Assembly (NCBI RefSeq): GCF_000719475.1
Contig: NZ_JOGO01000050.1
Span: 13,781-77,780, forward strand
Direction: 5' to 3'
Source: Streptomyces sp. NRRL F-5630
GTDB taxonomy: Bacteria; Actinomycetota; Actinomycetes; Streptomycetales; Streptomycetaceae
DNA: 64,000 nt
The position numbers and the translations under genes are program-made. Each line of letters begins with the position of its first letter. The stretch's first letter is position 1. A model generated the notes under the pieces. The model had not been told where the DNA came from, ran no database searches, and worked only from the letters and a program-made list of their open reading frames with translations. Below are positions 6,391-33,624 of this stretch, piece after piece.

Positions 6391-7152
6391 TCAGTGGAAG
6401 TGCCCGTGGCGCCCCAGGGTCGTCACCGGCCCGGCCCCGGGCCTCGTCCACTGCGGCGTGGGGCGGCTGGTCTCGCCCCACCCGGCCGTCCCCTCGGCGT
6501 CCGTGCGCCAGTACCAGCACGGCTCGTTACCCTCGGGCCACCCCTCCGGGGTCTCCTCCCAGACCTCGCCGCGCCCGTACGGCGTCCGGTCCAGGAGCGC
6601 GAACGTCCCGCTGAACGCCTCGTTGCCGCGCCCTGTCGTCGTGTACGTGAGGAAGACGCGGTCCCCGTCGCGCAGGAACGCCGACAGGTTCCCCATGCCG
6701 CCGCCGACAGGCACGCCCGTGTCGCGCAGCGAGTACCACGGCTGGCGGTACCCCATGAACTCCGCGTACGGGCCCAGTTCCTCCCAGGCGCCGGAGGCCA
6801 GGAAGGCGAAGGAGACGCCGCGCGTCTCCAGGTAGGGCGTCGTGACCTGGAGGTGCCAGGCCGCGTTCGTGCACCCCTCGCACTGGCCCTGCGGCGGCGC
6901 GCCCTCGTACCACATGTGCTGGTAGGTGAGCAGTTCGTTCCGTCCGTCGAAGAGGTCGAGGAAGGGCACGGGCCCCTGGGCGCCGACCACTTCGGCCCTC
7001 CCGTCGACCTCGGTCATCGGCAGCCGGCGCCGCGCCGCCGCGAGCGCGTCGCCCTCGTGCGTGTACGCCTTCTCACGCACGAGCAGCGCGTCCCTGGCCT
7101 GCTGCCAGGTCTCCCTGTCCACCACGGGCGGCTGGGCGGGGGGTGTCGTCAT
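6391..7152 (-). CDS. DUF899 family thioredoxin-like protein
   Basis: 253 residues matching the DUF899 pattern: N-terminal helix with REKAYTHEGDALAAARRRLP, then FLDLFDGRNELLTYQHMWY, CEGCTNAAWH at the thioredoxin active-site position and a C-terminal tryptophan-rich part. The family has a thioredoxin-like fold; enzymatic role not established. It is encoded on the same strand as the ornithine aminotransferase gene upstream but 132 bases away, so co-transcription is uncertain. The convergent ATP-grasp gene ends 33 bases from its stop. ATG 7152 is supported by the family N-terminus starting soon after. Confidence 0.88.
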   Translation of the reverse strand: MTTPPAQPPVVDRETWQQARDALLVREKAYTHEGDALAAARRRLPMTEVDGRAEVVGAQGPVPFLDLFDGRNELLTYQHMWYEGAPPQGQCEGCTNAAWHLQVTTPYLETRGVSFAFLASGAWEELGPYAEFMGYRQPWYSLRDTGVPVGGGMGNLSAFLRDGDRVFLTYTTTGRGNEAFSGTFALLDRTPYGRGEVWEETPEGWPEGNEPCWYWRTDAEGTAGWGETSRPTPQWTRPGAGPVTTLGRHGHFH

Positions 7153-29256: not shown

Positions 29257-29835
29257 GTGGCTGTACTGCAACACGAGCTGACGTTGAGCGAAGCTGCCGA
29301 CCTGCTTGAGCAAGGGCTGCCCGGTCACCGTGTGGAGATTCTCCAGGGGAGGCTCACTGTGACACCGCCGCCGGACGGTTCGCACGCGCTGTCGTTGAGT
29401 TGGCTGGTCGAGGCGTTCGCCGGGGCGGGCGCGAGGAAGGCCGGGCTGAGGTACGTCCAGGGTCTCGGCCTCTGGCTCCCCACCCGCCCGGACGACTTCG
29501 CGATCCCGGACTTCTCGATCGTCGAGGCCCACTTCCGCGACGCCCTCGTGCGCCGCAGCTGCTACGCCCCCGAGGTCTTCCGGCTGGTCCTCGAAGTGAC
29601 GTCGAGCAACTGGTCCGACGACTTGGGCCCGAAGGTCGAGAGCTACGCCGCCGCCGGGGTGCCGGTGTACGTCGTGGTGGACCGCAAGCACGACGAGGTG
29701 CTGCTGCACCGCGACCCGGAGGACGGGGTGTACACGCGGGTGGAGCACTTCAAGCGGGGCAGCTTCGTGCCGGTCCCGGAATCGGTCGGCGTGGCGCTCG
29801 ACCTGCCGGTGGACACGCTGCTCGACGGCGACTGA
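29257..29835 (+). CDS. Uma2 family (DUF820) putative restriction-like endonuclease
   Basis: 192 residues of the Uma2/DUF820 family, PD-(D/E)xK fold. The N-terminus ELTLSEAADLLEQG and VEILQGRLTV are typical; the nuclease core is IPDFSIVEA (Asp), LVLEVTSSNW (Glu in ExT) and then DLGPKVESYAAAGVPVYVVVD (Lys). Such proteins are abundant in Streptomyces, and their biological role is unclear. GTG 29257 has AAAGGAGG directly upstream. It lies just before the leuE-like exporter, 78 bases apart. Confidence 0.88.
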   Translation: MAVLQHELTLSEAADLLEQGLPGHRVEILQGRLTVTPPPDGSHALSLSWLVEAFAGAGARKAGLRYVQGLGLWLPTRPDDFAIPDFSIVEAHFRDALVRRSCYAPEVFRLVLEVTSSNWSDDLGPKVESYAAAGVPVYVVVDRKHDEVLLHRDPEDGVYTRVEHFKRGSFVPVPESVGVALDLPVDTLLDGD

Positions 29836-29913: not shown

Positions 29914-30561
29914 ATGTTCGGCGTCATAGACCTGCCCACGTACCTCGCGGGCGTGGCACTCATCGTTCTGCTGCCCGGGCCCAACTCGCTCTACGTGCTC
30001 TCGGTGGGCGCGCGGCGCGGGGTGCGGACCGGGTACAAGGCCGCTGCCGGGGTGTTCCTCGGGGACACGGTGCTCATGACGCTGTCGGCCGCGGGCGTCG
30101 CCTCGCTGCTCCAGGCGAACGAGATGCTGTTCTCACTCGTCAAGTACGCGGGCGCCGGGTACCTGACCTGGCTCGCCTACGGCATGATCCGCTCCGCGCT
30201 CGCGCTGTGGCGCACGCGCCAGGAGCGGGCCGCCGAGGCGGCGGGCGAGGAAGCTCCGGCGGAGCGCGAGCGCCCCTTCCGCCGGGCCTTCGTGATCAGC
30301 CTCTTCAACCCGAAGGCGATCCTCTTCTTCATCGCCTTCTTCGTGCAGTTCGTTCCAGCGTCAAACCCACTCCCGGGCTTCATCTTCCTGGGCTTCCTTG
30401 CCCAGGTCGCGAGCGCTCTGTACCTGTCGGTCTTGATCTTCAGCGGCGCTCGCCTCGCAGCGGCCTTCCGCAAGCGCAAGGCGCTCAGTGCGGGAGCTAC
30501 CTCCGCAGCCGGGGTCGTCTTCCTCGGGTTCGCCTTGAAGCTGTCGTTGGCAAGCGCGTAG
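29914..30561 (+). CDS. leuE: LysE/RhtB family amino acid exporter, leucine-efflux type
   Basis: 215 residues with about six transmembrane helices. The family hallmark LLPGPNSLYVLSVGARRGVRTGYKAAAG is near residue 20-45, and FVISLFNPKAILFFIAFFVQF is the second LysE signature. ATG 29914 is preceded by a weak ribosome site. From about codon 146 onward (30350) the base composition and codon use fall to a lower G+C, and a second, high-G+C version of this same C-terminal part lies 3.06 kb downstream. The gene is intact, but its 3' third appears to have been replaced by element DNA. Confidence 0.9.
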   Translation: MFGVIDLPTYLAGVALIVLLPGPNSLYVLSVGARRGVRTGYKAAAGVFLGDTVLMTLSAAGVASLLQANEMLFSLVKYAGAGYLTWLAYGMIRSALALWRTRQERAAEAAGEEAPAERERPFRRAFVISLFNPKAILFFIAFFVQFVPASNPLPGFIFLGFLAQVASALYLSVLIFSGARLAAAFRKRKALSAGATSAAGVVFLGFALKLSLASA

Positions 30562-30643
30562 GGGGCGTCGTGTCCGATCTCGTCCGTGTTGCATCCCTGT
30601 TCGCCCACATGACCCGCGCGGATGCCGTGATCAGGGGAGTGGA

Positions 30644-30680
30644 AGAGCCCCGCCCTGACACGCAATCAGGACGAGGCTCT
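30644..30680 (+). terminator. Terminator-like hairpin after leuE
   Basis: AGAGCCCCGCCCTGA pairs with TCAGGACGAGGCTCT, with two non-Watson-Crick positions and a 7-base loop, then TTGG. It lies 83 bases after the leuE stop and can end transcription of that gene. Confidence 0.5.
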
Positions 30681-30845
30681 TGGCGTGAGAAGTGGCCTGG
30701 TGCGGGCGCCCTTCGGGACGCTGGTGGGGTCTACGCGTCAGTGCGCAGCTCTCCCGGCATGGGGCCGGCTCCGAGGACCATGGCGTGCGGGGGACAGGCG
30801 AAGAGAGTGAAGCCGGGGCCAGGCTGCTCCCCTACTGCCGTTGTC

Positions 30846-31812
30846 TCAGCGACTCTGATTGAGCGCGACGCTCAACAGGAGTTCGACCAGCCTGTGCGCA
30901 GCGTCGGGCTTGCCCATTGAGCGCGCCGCTCCCGCCATCGTCTCCCGGCGCTGTGGGTCGGACAGAAGAGGTTCCAGGGCGCCCCGCAGCGCGGACGCGG
31001 TGGCCCTGTCTCCGGTCAGCGCTACAGCGGCCTTCGACCCAGTTCGGCCCGCACTGGTGGATGACGTTGGCGACGGACAGCAGCCACGGGAGGTTTTCAC
31101 GGATCACGCCGTTGATCTGCTCGCTGCCCTGGGCTCCGCCGGTGATGTAGACGGTGGGCAAGTCGGGGTCGTATCCGGTCATGCCGAGGGCGGGAACGGC
31201 CTTGGCGGGGTCGCCGGTGAGCACGGTGGGCCGGACAGGGTTGCCGGTGACGACAGCGGCAGCGGCGACGGAGTCGGGGAGAAGGCTCAGCGAGTTCTCC
31301 GACGACAGCGCGACGGCGGTCGCGGAGCGGGCGAGGACCCGGTTGGCCAGGCCGAGTCGGACGGTCTGCTCATGGATGACCAGCGGAGTCTTCGTCGCGC
31401 GGGCAGCAAACCCCACGGGGACAGCGACATACCCCCCGGTGGAGAGGATCACGTCGGCCTGGAAGCGGCGAGCGATGGTCCGGGCCTCCAGGACGCCCTT
31501 GGGAACGCGACCCACGTCCCGCATGTTCTCAGCATTGATCATCTTCAGCGGGTTGCTGGAGCGGCGTAGCTTGCCGGTCGGCACGGTTTCGAAGGGGATG
31601 CCCTCGGCAGGGGCGACGCGGGATTCGAGCCCGGTGGCGGTGCCGACCCATAGGACGTCCACGCTCGCGCCGTGGTGGTGCATGACGGTCTGCATCTCGC
31701 GGACCGCTGTCAGGGCGGGATAGGTGTGCCCACCCGTTCCGCCTCCCGTCACCATCAGCTTGAAGGGACGGCGAAAGGAGGCGAAACGGGTGGCGAGGGC
31801 GTCGACGGTCAC
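30846..31812 (-). pseudogene. murG-like glycosyltransferase pseudogene (internal deletion and frameshift)
   Basis: From GTG 31812 the sequence reads as a MurG paralogue: KLMVTGGGTGGHTYPALTAV (GGTGGH loop), GTATGLESRVAPAEGIPFE, VILSTGGYVAVPVGFAA, LVIHEQTVRLGLANRVLA, VTGNPVRPTVL and YITGGAQGSEQIN. After HQCGPNWVEG, near 31035, the frame shifts. The C-terminus resumes in another frame as AAVALTGDRATASALRGAL and runs to 30846. About 75 residues of the C-terminal domain, including the UDP-GlcNAc-binding region, are missing. It cannot encode a working MurG. Its lower G+C and position inside the leuE insertion show it came with the element; the housekeeping murG belongs in the dcw cluster. Confidence 0.8.
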
Positions 31813-31984
31813 AGCGTGACGGCATCCGATCGTGAGGGCTCCGCATCCGACGAGCCGGAGCCGACGGCGGTCATGCGAACCTCCCGGACGATATCAGGCA
31901 ATCTGACCTTGGTGAGGAGCCAGCCGACCCCGGCGGCTGACGCGGCTGGAGGCTGGTGAGAACTCGGTTGTCGACATCGCGGAC

Positions 31985-32674
31985 GTGATCGCGCTCTGCG
32001 AGAACTACGCGGCGCCGCGAGAGAAGCGTGCTCTGCTGCTCGAATACGCCGCGGTGACGAAGAGCAAGCGAGACTGGTGGCAGACTCCCGAGTTCCGACT
32101 GGCCATCCCGCCATCGTTCAAGGCTTACCTGGGTCTTGAGGCGACTGCCGAGAGTCTGAACAACTACAAAGCCGAGTTCGTGCCCGGCCTCCTTCAGACG
32201 GAGGGGTACGTATGGACGATCCACGAGCGCTCGCACGAAAGGCTCCCAAGCGACGAGATCGACCGCATCGTTGCCGTCCGCATGACTCGACAGGAGGCTC
32301 TTCACCGTGTGGAGGCCCCCTTGCAATTCGCTGCGATCATCAACGAGGCCGTCTTGTACCGTCAGGTCGGTGGTCCGGACGTCATGCGGGCTCAGGTACA
32401 GCATCTGTGCGAAATGGCCATGCAGCCGGGCGTTCGGATTCAGGTCGTGCCGTTCAAGGCCGGCGCTCATGCCGGTGTGAACGGTTCGTTCATGCTCCTG
32501 CGGTTCGAAGATGCTCAGCCGATCGTCTACCTGGAGAACCTAGGCGGTGCGTCAGTCATGCGTAAGCCTAAGAGCGTTGACCAGTACGAACGAGCGTTCA
32601 CCGACCTCCAGATTCTTGCCTTGGGAGAACGAGATTCCCTCGGCATGATGAAAGAAGCAATCAAGGAGCATTGA
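31985..32674 (+). CDS. DUF5753 regulator with most of its XRE helix-turn-helix missing
   Basis: From GTG 31985, 229 residues: IADV..LCENYAAPREKRALLLEYA corresponds to the end of an XRE helix-turn-helix, then WWQTPEFRL and a complete DUF5753 domain (YKAEFVPGLLQTEGYVW, VAVRMTRQEALHR, VVPFKAGAHAGVNGSFMLLRF). Upstream in the same frame the residues RLEAGENSVVD can be read back to 31916, where the frame meets a stop, so helices 1-3 of the HTH are absent. The protein, if made, probably cannot bind DNA. It is paired with the DUF397 gene downstream, the standard actinobacterial arrangement. Confidence 0.75.
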   Translation: MIALCENYAAPREKRALLLEYAAVTKSKRDWWQTPEFRLAIPPSFKAYLGLEATAESLNNYKAEFVPGLLQTEGYVWTIHERSHERLPSDEIDRIVAVRMTRQEALHRVEAPLQFAAIINEAVLYRQVGGPDVMRAQVQHLCEMAMQPGVRIQVVPFKAGAHAGVNGSFMLLRFEDAQPIVYLENLGGASVMRKPKSVDQYERAFTDLQILALGERDSLGMMKEAIKEH

Positions 32675-32679
32675 TTCAG

Positions 32680-32892
32680 ATGACCAACCACGCCGCACTG
32701 ACCGGGGCTCGCTGGTTCCGTTCAAGTTACAGTAATGACCAGGCCGGGAATTGCGTCGAGGGCGCAAGGCTCGAAGGTGCGGCCATGGCAGTGCGGGACT
32801 CGAAGGACCCGAACGCCGGGGCGTTCGTTTTTCGAGCAGATGCCTGGGGTGCTTTCCTCAACACAGTTAAGGGACGCACCGCAGAAATGTAG
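32680..32892 (+). CDS. DUF397 domain protein
   Basis: 70 residues with the family pattern ARWFRSSYSNDQAGNCVEGA near the N-terminus and VRDSKDPNAGAFVFRADAWGAFL in the second half. ATG 32680 lies 5 bases after the DUF5753 stop and has AAGGAG about 12 bases upstream; TTG 32671 overlapping that stop is an alternative. DUF397 proteins accompany XRE-DUF5753 regulators as small antagonists in Streptomyces (BldB/WhiJ-type systems as known). Lower G+C than flanking genes. Confidence 0.9.
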   Translation: MTNHAALTGARWFRSSYSNDQAGNCVEGARLEGAAMAVRDSKDPNAGAFVFRADAWGAFLNTVKGRTAEM

Positions 32893-32909
32893 CCCCGATG
32901 TGGGAAGAC

Positions 32910-32938
32910 GGAGCCCCGAGCGCAACGCTCGGGGCTCC
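32910..32938 (+). terminator. Terminator after DUF397
   Basis: GGAGCCCCGAGCG and CGCTCGGGGCTCC form a perfect 13-base-pair stem with a 3-base loop, followed by TGTCGTTT. It ends the DUF5753-DUF397 transcript. Confidence 0.88.
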
Positions 32939-32979
32939 TGTCGTTTCCCCCCCCACATGGGATGTGTGTGTCAATTCAT

Positions 32980-33357
32980 TCATGAGCGGTCGTGACGGGT
33001 CTCGATTGTGCTGAGAACCACGGAAGCGGCCATTGATTCATTCATGAGTGCCATCCGTGTAGCCCAGAATGCCGAGAAGGGCTCTTGGGGGGAGGTGGAA
33101 TAGGGTGCCTTCTTGGTGGCTGAGACCCCCAAGTCCCGGGCGACTCCCACCAGGCGGATACCTTCGCGGAGCGAGTGGCGGCGTAGATCCAGCTCCTGTC
33201 GTGCCAGGCTGGTGGTCTCCTCCGTGAGCACGGACAGGCGCACGGACAGCAGTCCTCGGAGTGCGTCCTCCGGTAGGGCGTCGTTCGCTGCCTCCAGCTC
33301 GGCAAGCTCCAGGAGTTCGTCTGCGGTCCAGTCGGGGGCGGTCGTCTTCGGTGCCAT
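32980..33357 (-). CDS. Small hypothetical protein of the leuE-inserted element
   Basis: 125 residues from ATG 33357 (an in-frame ATG 72 bases upstream would cross the putative right end of the element). It starts APDWTADELLELAELEAANDA; the middle has REGIRLVGVARDLGVSATK, which could be a helix-turn-helix segment. No named family recognised. Element proteins of this size often are regulators. Weakly supported by codon use; it is the last feature before the right attachment boundary. Confidence 0.5.
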   Translation of the reverse strand: MAPKTTAPDWTADELLELAELEAANDALPEDALRGLLSVRLSVLTEETTSLARQELDLRRHSLREGIRLVGVARDLGVSATKKAPYSTSPQEPFSAFWATRMALMNESMAASVVLSTIETRHDRS

Positions 33358-33404
33358 CCGGCGCAGCCGTACGCGCAGTTGGATGCTGGAACTATCTTCA
33401 TTCG

Positions 33405-33624
33405 GTTCGTTGACCCCGCCTATGCCCACCCCGCGCTCTCCTTCGTCGTGCTCGGCTTCTTCGCCCAGCTCGCCAGCGCCCTCTACCTGAGCGTCCTCAT
33501 CTTCACCGGCACCCGCCTCGCCGCCGCCTTCGCCCGCCGCCGTCGCCTCCGCGCCACCGTCACCTCCGCGGCGGGCGCCCTCTTCCTCGGCTTCGCGGTG
33601 AAGCTCTCGCTGAGCGGCGTCTGA
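33405..33624 (+). pseudogene. Displaced native 3' end of the leuE-type gene
   Basis: The frame reads FVDPAYAHPALSFVVLGFFA, then QLASALYLSVLIFTGTRLAA and ends KLSLSGV, closely matching the last 70 residues of the leuE product at 29914-30561. It has no start of its own and, unlike the functional gene's 3' end, is very G+C-rich, matching the host. It is the original gene end, separated by the 3.06-kb insertion. Confidence 0.85.

What the first reader, a model, noticed from the sequence alone, without database searches (positions are those of the whole stretch)
29914..33624. leuE-type exporter split and repaired by a 3.06-kb insertion that carries its own 3' gene end
The last 70 codons of the exporter occur twice: a low-G+C version completing the working gene, and a host-like high-G+C orphan copy at 33405-33624. 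Both junctions share GTTCGTT in the same codon phase. This is how integrative elements that target protein genes preserve the host function, but LysE-family genes are not, to my knowledge, standard attachment sites in Streptomyces.
Basis: partly seen in the sequence, partly recalled or inferred. Interest (0 to 1): 0.75.

Follow-up and report, generated by a model that had tools for sequence, protein, structure and literature searches.

The report
Decayed mobile element that rebuilt exporter
A small phage-like mobile element once inserted into the middle of an amino-acid exporter gene and brought its own copy of the gene's last third, so the gene stayed whole; relatives show the same trick at other genes, with the element's likely exit-switch gene placed right behind the mended gene.

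Summary
Confirmed and explained. The exporter (29914-30561) has a host 5' part and an element-supplied last ~70 codons; the displaced host 3' end lies 3057 bp downstream (33403-33624). The insert is a decayed element with a phiJoe-type large serine integrase: 86 N-terminal codons of the integrase survive (33357-33100, minus) and 15 codons of an RDF-like gene (30570-30614). Twelve other genomes of the genus (Streptomyces) carry integrases at least 83% identical: 11 of 12 have the chimeric exporter; 10 of 12 show the displaced host tail by protein match, one more by DNA, one not. A circular IMG/VR contig (8819 bp) holds the tail between integrase and RDF-like gene and no exporter 5' part: the free form. 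Element tails form one clade, their 5' parts are scattered. In the typed sample 106 of 113 genomes have the uninterrupted host-type gene. Sister integrases (~50% identity) mend a radical-SAM gene (6 of 7 loci) and a GHL10 gene (2 of 3), not demonstrably a third gene (0 of 2). In nine phage loci (eight distinct phages, phiJoe included) the carried gene tail overlaps the RDF start by 4 nt. Gene-mending islands and phiJoe-type modules are known; exporter target, long tail and tail-RDF linkage I did not find in print. That the linkage controls excision is inference.

The parts
29914..30336 (+). host-derived 5' part of the LeuE-like exporter (codons 1-141)
   Evidence: clusters with scattered host heads, not with other element-bearing genes; GC3 0.956
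30337..30353 (+). left junction core TTCTTCGTGCAGTTCGT (attL), codons 142-147
   Evidence: identical in attP of circular L223, in 12 of 14 left junctions and 86 of 106 host-type genes
30354..30561 (+). element-supplied 3' end of the exporter, to the stop
   Evidence: member of the element-tail clade, support 99; GC3 of the last 71 codons 0.817
30570..30614 (+). remnant (15 codons) of the RDF-like gene, 8 nt after the exporter stop
   Evidence: G010 has an 80-aa version, most relatives 71 aa
30832..31812 (-). MurG-like glycosyltransferase with a gap of about 240 bp at 31032/31033 relative to G010; cargo
   Evidence: PF03033. The gap coincides with the end of a 94-bp identity to the end of contig C133 and may be a recombination or assembly junction
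31985..32674 (+). XRE-DUF5753 regulator, 5'-truncated (helix-turn-helix start lost)
   Evidence: PF19054; upstream frame closes at a stop
32671..32892 (+). DUF397 gene
   Evidence: PF04149
33100..33357 (-). remnant of the large serine integrase, first 86 residues
   Evidence: 76.7% identity to S. altiplanensis integrase residues 1-86; PHROG 95, E 3.5e-7
33394..33410 (+). right junction core (attR), 13 of 17 identical to the consensus core
33403..33624 (+). displaced original 3' end of the host exporter (orphan)
   Evidence: closer to host-type tails (mean identity 0.73) than to element tails (0.65), GC3 0.959

Best explanation
An integrative element with a phiJoe-type large serine integrase recombined its attP with a 17-bp core at codons 142-147 of a LeuE-like exporter. 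Its attP is followed by its own in-frame copy of the rest of the exporter, so integration replaces the gene's last ~70 codons and pushes the host's own end to the far side; the exporter remains one open gene. 8-9 nt behind the replaced tail stands a small RDF-like gene, which integration makes the next reading frame after the host gene. Shown by sequence: insertion, tail replacement, displaced end, a free circular form, repetition in many genomes, a matching layout in phages. Inferred: that the small gene is the excision factor (RDF), that its position behind the host gene sets its expression, that the chimeric exporter is functional, and that elements with capsid and terminase genes travel as phage satellites. 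The window copy lost most of its integrase and RDF-like gene and is a fossil.
For: Window keeps integrase residues 1-86 beside the right junction (PHROG 95) and the RDF-like start beside the left. In 12 other genomes with this integrase, 11 have the element-type exporter (in SH_71_13 none was found in the 7 kb from the integrase to the contig end) and 10 have the host-type orphan by protein match, G057 by a DNA match reaching 54 bp into it, G151 none. Circular contig L223 carries integrase, core, tail and RDF-like gene, no exporter 5' part. Element tails form one clade (16 rows, support 99); their heads need 14 changes (shuffled mean 13.4) and one clade is rejected, AU p 2.1e-8. All 11 orphans are nearer to host tails than to element tails. 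106 of 113 typed genomes have the uninterrupted host type.
Against: The window's right core has 4 mismatches in 17 and the integrase is truncated, so the window alone would not prove the case. Median dN/dS of element tails (0.202, 119 of 120 pairs) is above that of host tails (0.128, 432 of 435 pairs among the first 30) and near that of displaced orphans (0.243, 55 of 55 pairs, one of them read through a frameshift), so constraint on the tails is supported only weakly by this measure. The RDF-like gene resembles phiJoe gp52 only faintly (hhalign probability 33%). Circularity of L223 rests on its 127-bp terminal repeat. Orthology of the host-type sites rests on the gene trees, not on synteny.
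Confidence: 0.93

Rival explanations
1. Tandem duplication of the exporter, the second copy later losing its 5' part.
For: Two copies of the 3' end lie in the same orientation and frame.
Against: The completing tail belongs to a clade of element tails, the orphan to host tails; integrase, core and RDF-like gene sit at the copy boundaries in many genomes; none of 106 host-type loci has a second tail in the stretch seen.
Confidence: 0.02
2. Gene conversion or homologous recombination imported a foreign exporter end with neighbouring genes, without an integrase.
For: Window and G010 tails are more alike (dS 0.035, 71 codons) than their heads (dS 0.233, 136 codons), which conversion between strains could also give.
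Against: Junctions fall at one 17-bp core in unrelated hosts; the displaced host end is kept; a free circle with the tail exists.
Confidence: 0.03
3. The tail is carried only as an extended attP or by-product and does not serve to keep the exporter working.
For: Element tails show only moderate constraint, similar to the displaced orphans; no function of the chimera was tested.
Against: phiJoe attP is at most 50 bp (PMC5311408 passage), whereas this tail is about 210 bp and runs exactly to the gene's stop in the 14 left junctions and the circle; tail length follows the target: 71 codons here, 23-35 for radical SAM (6 loci), 99-107 for GHL10 (2 loci).
Confidence: 0.1
4. The elements are decayed prophages or ordinary genomic islands rather than phage satellites.
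For: Several copies are short (2.5-5.6 kb from exporter stop to orphan), IS-invaded or broken; no helper is known; Pfam-tested capsid genes were found in three elements only (S. altiplanensis fragment, G234, L223).
Against: L223 is a compact 8.8-kb circle with small terminase subunit, capsid and HNH genes, a make-up reported for capsid-forming satellites (PMC10690885 passages).
Confidence: 0.4

Closest known systems
phiJoe integration module and SCO2603-type elements (Fogg et al. 2017, PMC5311408; passages and section 8 part 1 read)
   Same: Large serine integrase divergent from a small RDF gene with attP between them; insertion inside a protein gene; small elements of varied content at one site.
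   Different: Target there is a B12-binding radical-SAM gene 74 bp from its end; here codons 142-147 of an exporter, about 210 bp from the end. The carried gene end is not mentioned in the passages I read (term search of the main text).
Gene-regenerating genomic islands (Islander, PMC4383910, start of abstract; PMC12884075, passages)
   Same: Island sequence restores the split target gene and leaves a displaced fragment.
   Different: The Islander abstract speaks of tRNA/tmRNA genes and tyrosine integrases; here a serine integrase and a third of a protein.
Capsid-forming phage satellites, cf-PICIs (described in PMC10690885, passages)
   Same: Small elements with major capsid protein, small terminase subunit and HNH gene.
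   Different: No portal, protease or large terminase subunit among the ORFs that I scanned; serine integrase; helper dependence untested.
SCCmec at rlmH and phage e14/P21 at icd (recalled, no call)
   Same: Elements that keep a protein-coding target whole by carrying its 3' end; SCCmec with serine recombinases.
   Different: Recalled: SCCmec replaces only a few codons; the icd elements use tyrosine integrases.

Membership tests
phiJoe-type serine integrase module | Large serine recombinase (Resolvase plus Recombinase domains) | tested here: met
   Relatives: both Pfam domains; window keeps residues 1-86 only; about 50% identical to integrases of Likavirus-type phages
phiJoe-type serine integrase module | Small RDF gene on the other side of attP, divergent from int | tested here: inconclusive
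   Position and size match; sequence similarity to gp52 weak, hhalign probability 33%; activity not testable here
phiJoe-type serine integrase module | Integration at the radical-SAM gene | tested here: not met
   Target is the exporter in this clade; the module type, not the phiJoe target, is claimed
Gene-regenerating integrative element | Element supplies the lost gene end and the original end is displaced | tested here: met
Gene-regenerating integrative element | Regenerated gene is functional | not testable with these tools
   Open frame and score above the LeuE cut-off only
Capsid-forming phage satellite | Own capsid and packaging genes | tested here: inconclusive
   Small terminase subunit and capsid gene in G234 and L223, capsid fragment in S. 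altiplanensis; large terminase, portal and protease not found among scanned ORFs; none of these genes in the window
Capsid-forming phage satellite | Helper-dependent mobilisation | not testable with these tools
   needs an experiment
LeuE/LysE exporter | Score above the curated LeuE cut-off with the chimeric tail | tested here: met
   NF008201 273.8 bits, cut-off 165; transport not tested

The most novel reading that the evidence does not exclude
phiJoe-type serine-integrase elements use the carried gene tail as a wiring device: integration makes the excision factor the next cistron of the host's target gene (4-nt stop-start overlap in nine phage loci, eight distinct phages; 8-9 nt behind the exporter), so the RDF is read from the host promoter only in the integrated state and is cut off from it on excision. 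Gene mending and control of directionality would be one trait, and tail length would evolve with the target.
Probability: 0.4. Interest if true: 0.78.

Novelty: new variant of a known kind. Interest (0 to 1): 0.62.

Why it matters
It adds a mid-gene exporter site to the Streptomyces integrase targets and shows that serine-integrase elements can swap a third of a host membrane protein again and again (one tail clade joined to scattered heads). When the element decays the chimera stays (G010, G100, G077 and the window), so such elements leave lasting recombinant host genes. The tail-RDF linkage offers a rule for finding RDF genes, for which Fogg et al. (section 8) write that no sound generalisation exists yet, and makes integration-dependent control of excision directly testable. 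For vectors it suggests attP versions that leave the target gene whole.

Tried and rejected
Tandem duplication and plain gene conversion were rejected on trees and junctions. A search for the element-type exporter tail in annotated phages gave no match at E up to 0.01; the plasmid collection gave only recombinases under 60% identity, two records covering 80% or more of the query. Third sister group (tail that looks MBL-like by eye, no Pfam or NCBIfam hit): 0 of 2 loci (G238, G315) show a second copy in about 38 kb, so mending is not shown there. GHL10 group: 2 of 3; in G183 the contig is cut. Radical-SAM group: 6 of 7; L055 shows no second copy in the 10 kb held. Most of the 42 genomes outside the exporter clade were not examined for mending. 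G077 keeps the element tail, an RDF-like frame and a 32-codon remnant of a displaced tail; in G010 and G100 neither integrase nor displaced tail was found, though G100 has a 109-bp match to element cargo. One search picked wrong TTG starts for G057 and G151; one search replaces it, and its value 12 for G077 was measured one codon early (9 is right). Four of the 117 genomes with an exporter match (G031, G058, G099, G145) were not fetched and not typed. Trees used 40 of 106 host rows drawn at random; the row of Tue6430's orphan is read through a frameshift. The absence of a full integrase in the window's genome rests, where 3 of 15 candidates were scored. Ten literature searches showed, in listings and the passages I read, no LysE/LeuE attachment site and no tail-RDF linkage; the library holds open-licence papers only.
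Full report
WHAT IS THERE. The exporter at 29914-30561 is an open 215-aa LysE-family gene that passes the LeuE model. Its last 71 codons have a second, diverged copy at 33403-33624. GTTCGTT occurs at 30348 and 33405, 3057 bp apart and in the same codon phase. Third-position G+C is 0.956 in the exporter's first part, 0.817 in its tail and 0.959 in the orphan.

THE INSERT IS A DECAYED SERINE-INTEGRASE ELEMENT. The minus-strand frame next to the right junction (33357-33100) is the first 86 residues of a large serine integrase, 77% identical to that of Streptomyces altiplanensis, with a PHROG 95 hit. Full relatives have Resolvase and Recombinase domains. At the left junction, 8 nt after the exporter stop, 15 codons remain of a small gene that is intact in G010. 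Between lie a MurG-like glycosyltransferase with an internal gap, a 5'-truncated XRE-DUF5753 regulator and a DUF397 gene. No full integrase of this kind was found in the window's genome (E up to 1e-60, 3 of 15 candidates scored).

RELATIVES. A scan of GTDB genomes gave 12 loci, nine with an integrase 84-100% identical and three at 49%. A search of 392 genomes of the genus gave 50 with a match, eight of them at 91-98% identity. Eleven of 12 have the exporter with the element-type tail; in SH_71_13 none was found in the 7 kb between integrase and contig end. Ten of 12 show the displaced host tail by protein match, G057 by a DNA match reaching 54 bp into it, G151 not at all. The core TTCTTCGTGCAGTTCGT stands in 7 of 11 right junctions (window included), 12 of 14 left junctions, 86 of 106 host-type genes and the circular form.

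FREE FORM. IMG/VR contig L223 has 8946 bp with a 127-bp terminal repeat, hence a circle of 8819 bp. It encodes an integrase 95% identical, the element-type tail between integrase and RDF-like gene, and no exporter 5' part. This is the predicted attP. It also carries a small terminase subunit, a phage capsid gene, an HNH gene and a GntR regulator. The integrated G234 element has a small terminase subunit and a capsid gene, that of S. altiplanensis a capsid fragment.

TWO HISTORIES IN ONE GENE. Of 150 sampled genomes 117 had an exporter match at E up to 1e-40. In the tail tree (67 rows: 16 element, 11 orphan, 40 of 106 hosts) the element tails are one clade with support 99, and holding the orphans together is rejected, AU p 9.9e-7. 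In the head tree (55 rows) the 15 element-type genes need 14 changes against a shuffled mean of 13.4, and one clade is rejected, AU p 2.1e-8. So one tail family has been joined to many different host heads. Window and G010 have dS 0.233 in the head (136 codons) and 0.035 in the tail (71 codons): the tail is shared more recently than the head. Selection on the tails is less clear: median dN/dS is 0.202 for element tails, 0.243 for displaced orphans, 0.128 for host tails, 0.228 and 0.204 for element-type and host heads; the orphans' value mostly reflects divergence before displacement (inference).

THE DESIGN IS WIDER. Sister integrases near 50% identity lie beside other gene ends. In 6 of 7 radical-SAM loci and 2 of 3 GHL10 loci a second copy of the gene end closes the target at the far side (families). 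In a third group 0 of 2 loci showed a second copy. The phages carry the tail in their free genomes: in phiJoe the attP dinucleotide is followed in frame by 31 codons resembling the radical-SAM C terminus, whose stop overlaps the start of gp52, the experimentally shown RDF. The same 31-codon tail and 4-nt overlap stand in all nine phage loci checked: two fetched records and the seven non-exporter loci; L228 has the length and sequence signs of Yasdnil, so eight distinct. One search listed 974 phage records with a match; I examined one of those by fetch. In the exporter family the gap from stop to RDF-like start is 8-9 nt in 16 of 16 sequences, after correcting G077.

HOW IT WORKS. Shown by sequence: insertion at codons 142-147, replacement of the gene end, displacement of the original end, a free circular form, decay with the chimera left behind. 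Inferred: that the small gene is the RDF (similarity to gp52 is weak, hhalign probability 33%; position and size agree), that it is read from the host gene when integrated, that the chimeric exporter works, and that elements with capsid genes spread as satellites.

COMPARISON. Fogg et al. 2017 (PMC5311408; passages and section 8 part 1) describe the module and the many elements at the radical-SAM site, and suggest that an insertion so near the end may be harmless; a term search of the main text found no mention of a carried gene end. A 2026 paper (PMC12924846; passages and the discussion section) writes that few Streptomyces tools restore the target gene, naming u1/6 and pSAM2, and that in most cases it is inactivated. 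Durrant et al. (PMC10083194; passages) speak of target genes disrupted by serine recombinases. Gene reconstitution by islands in general is known (PMC12884075 passages; PMC4383910 start of abstract). Hence: new variant of a known kind.

CAUTION. The gap of about 240 bp in the MurG-like gene ends exactly where a 94-bp identity with the end of contig C133 ends, so the gap may reflect recombination or assembly. It does not touch the finding: flanks on both sides are collinear with G010, and both ends of the insert match relatives.

Noticed in passing
window 30939-31032 and L044 (G000:C133) 6854-6947: 94 bp of the MurG-like gene are identical to the end of another contig of the same genome, which continues into part of the segment missing in the window: a recombination or an assembly junction.
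   Followed up: partly
window 31943/31944: Similarity to G010 (L041) stops here; the regulator, DUF397 and integrase remnant to the right are absent from G010's stretch, so the window insert may be a mosaic of two blocks.
   Followed up: partly
window 29257-29835: A Uma2-family gene (PF05685, putative restriction endonuclease) lies directly upstream of the exporter.
   Followed up: no
L203, L202 (G130, G333): Sister serine integrases mend a GHL10 glycoside-hydrolase-like gene by carrying 99-107 codons of its end.
   Followed up: partly
L205, L206 (G238, G315): A third sister group sits beside a gene end that looks MBL-like by eye; no second copy was found in about 38 kb.
   Followed up: partly
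L040, L056 (G057, Tue6430): Transposase-like genes lie inside the integrase gene of these two elements.
   Followed up: no
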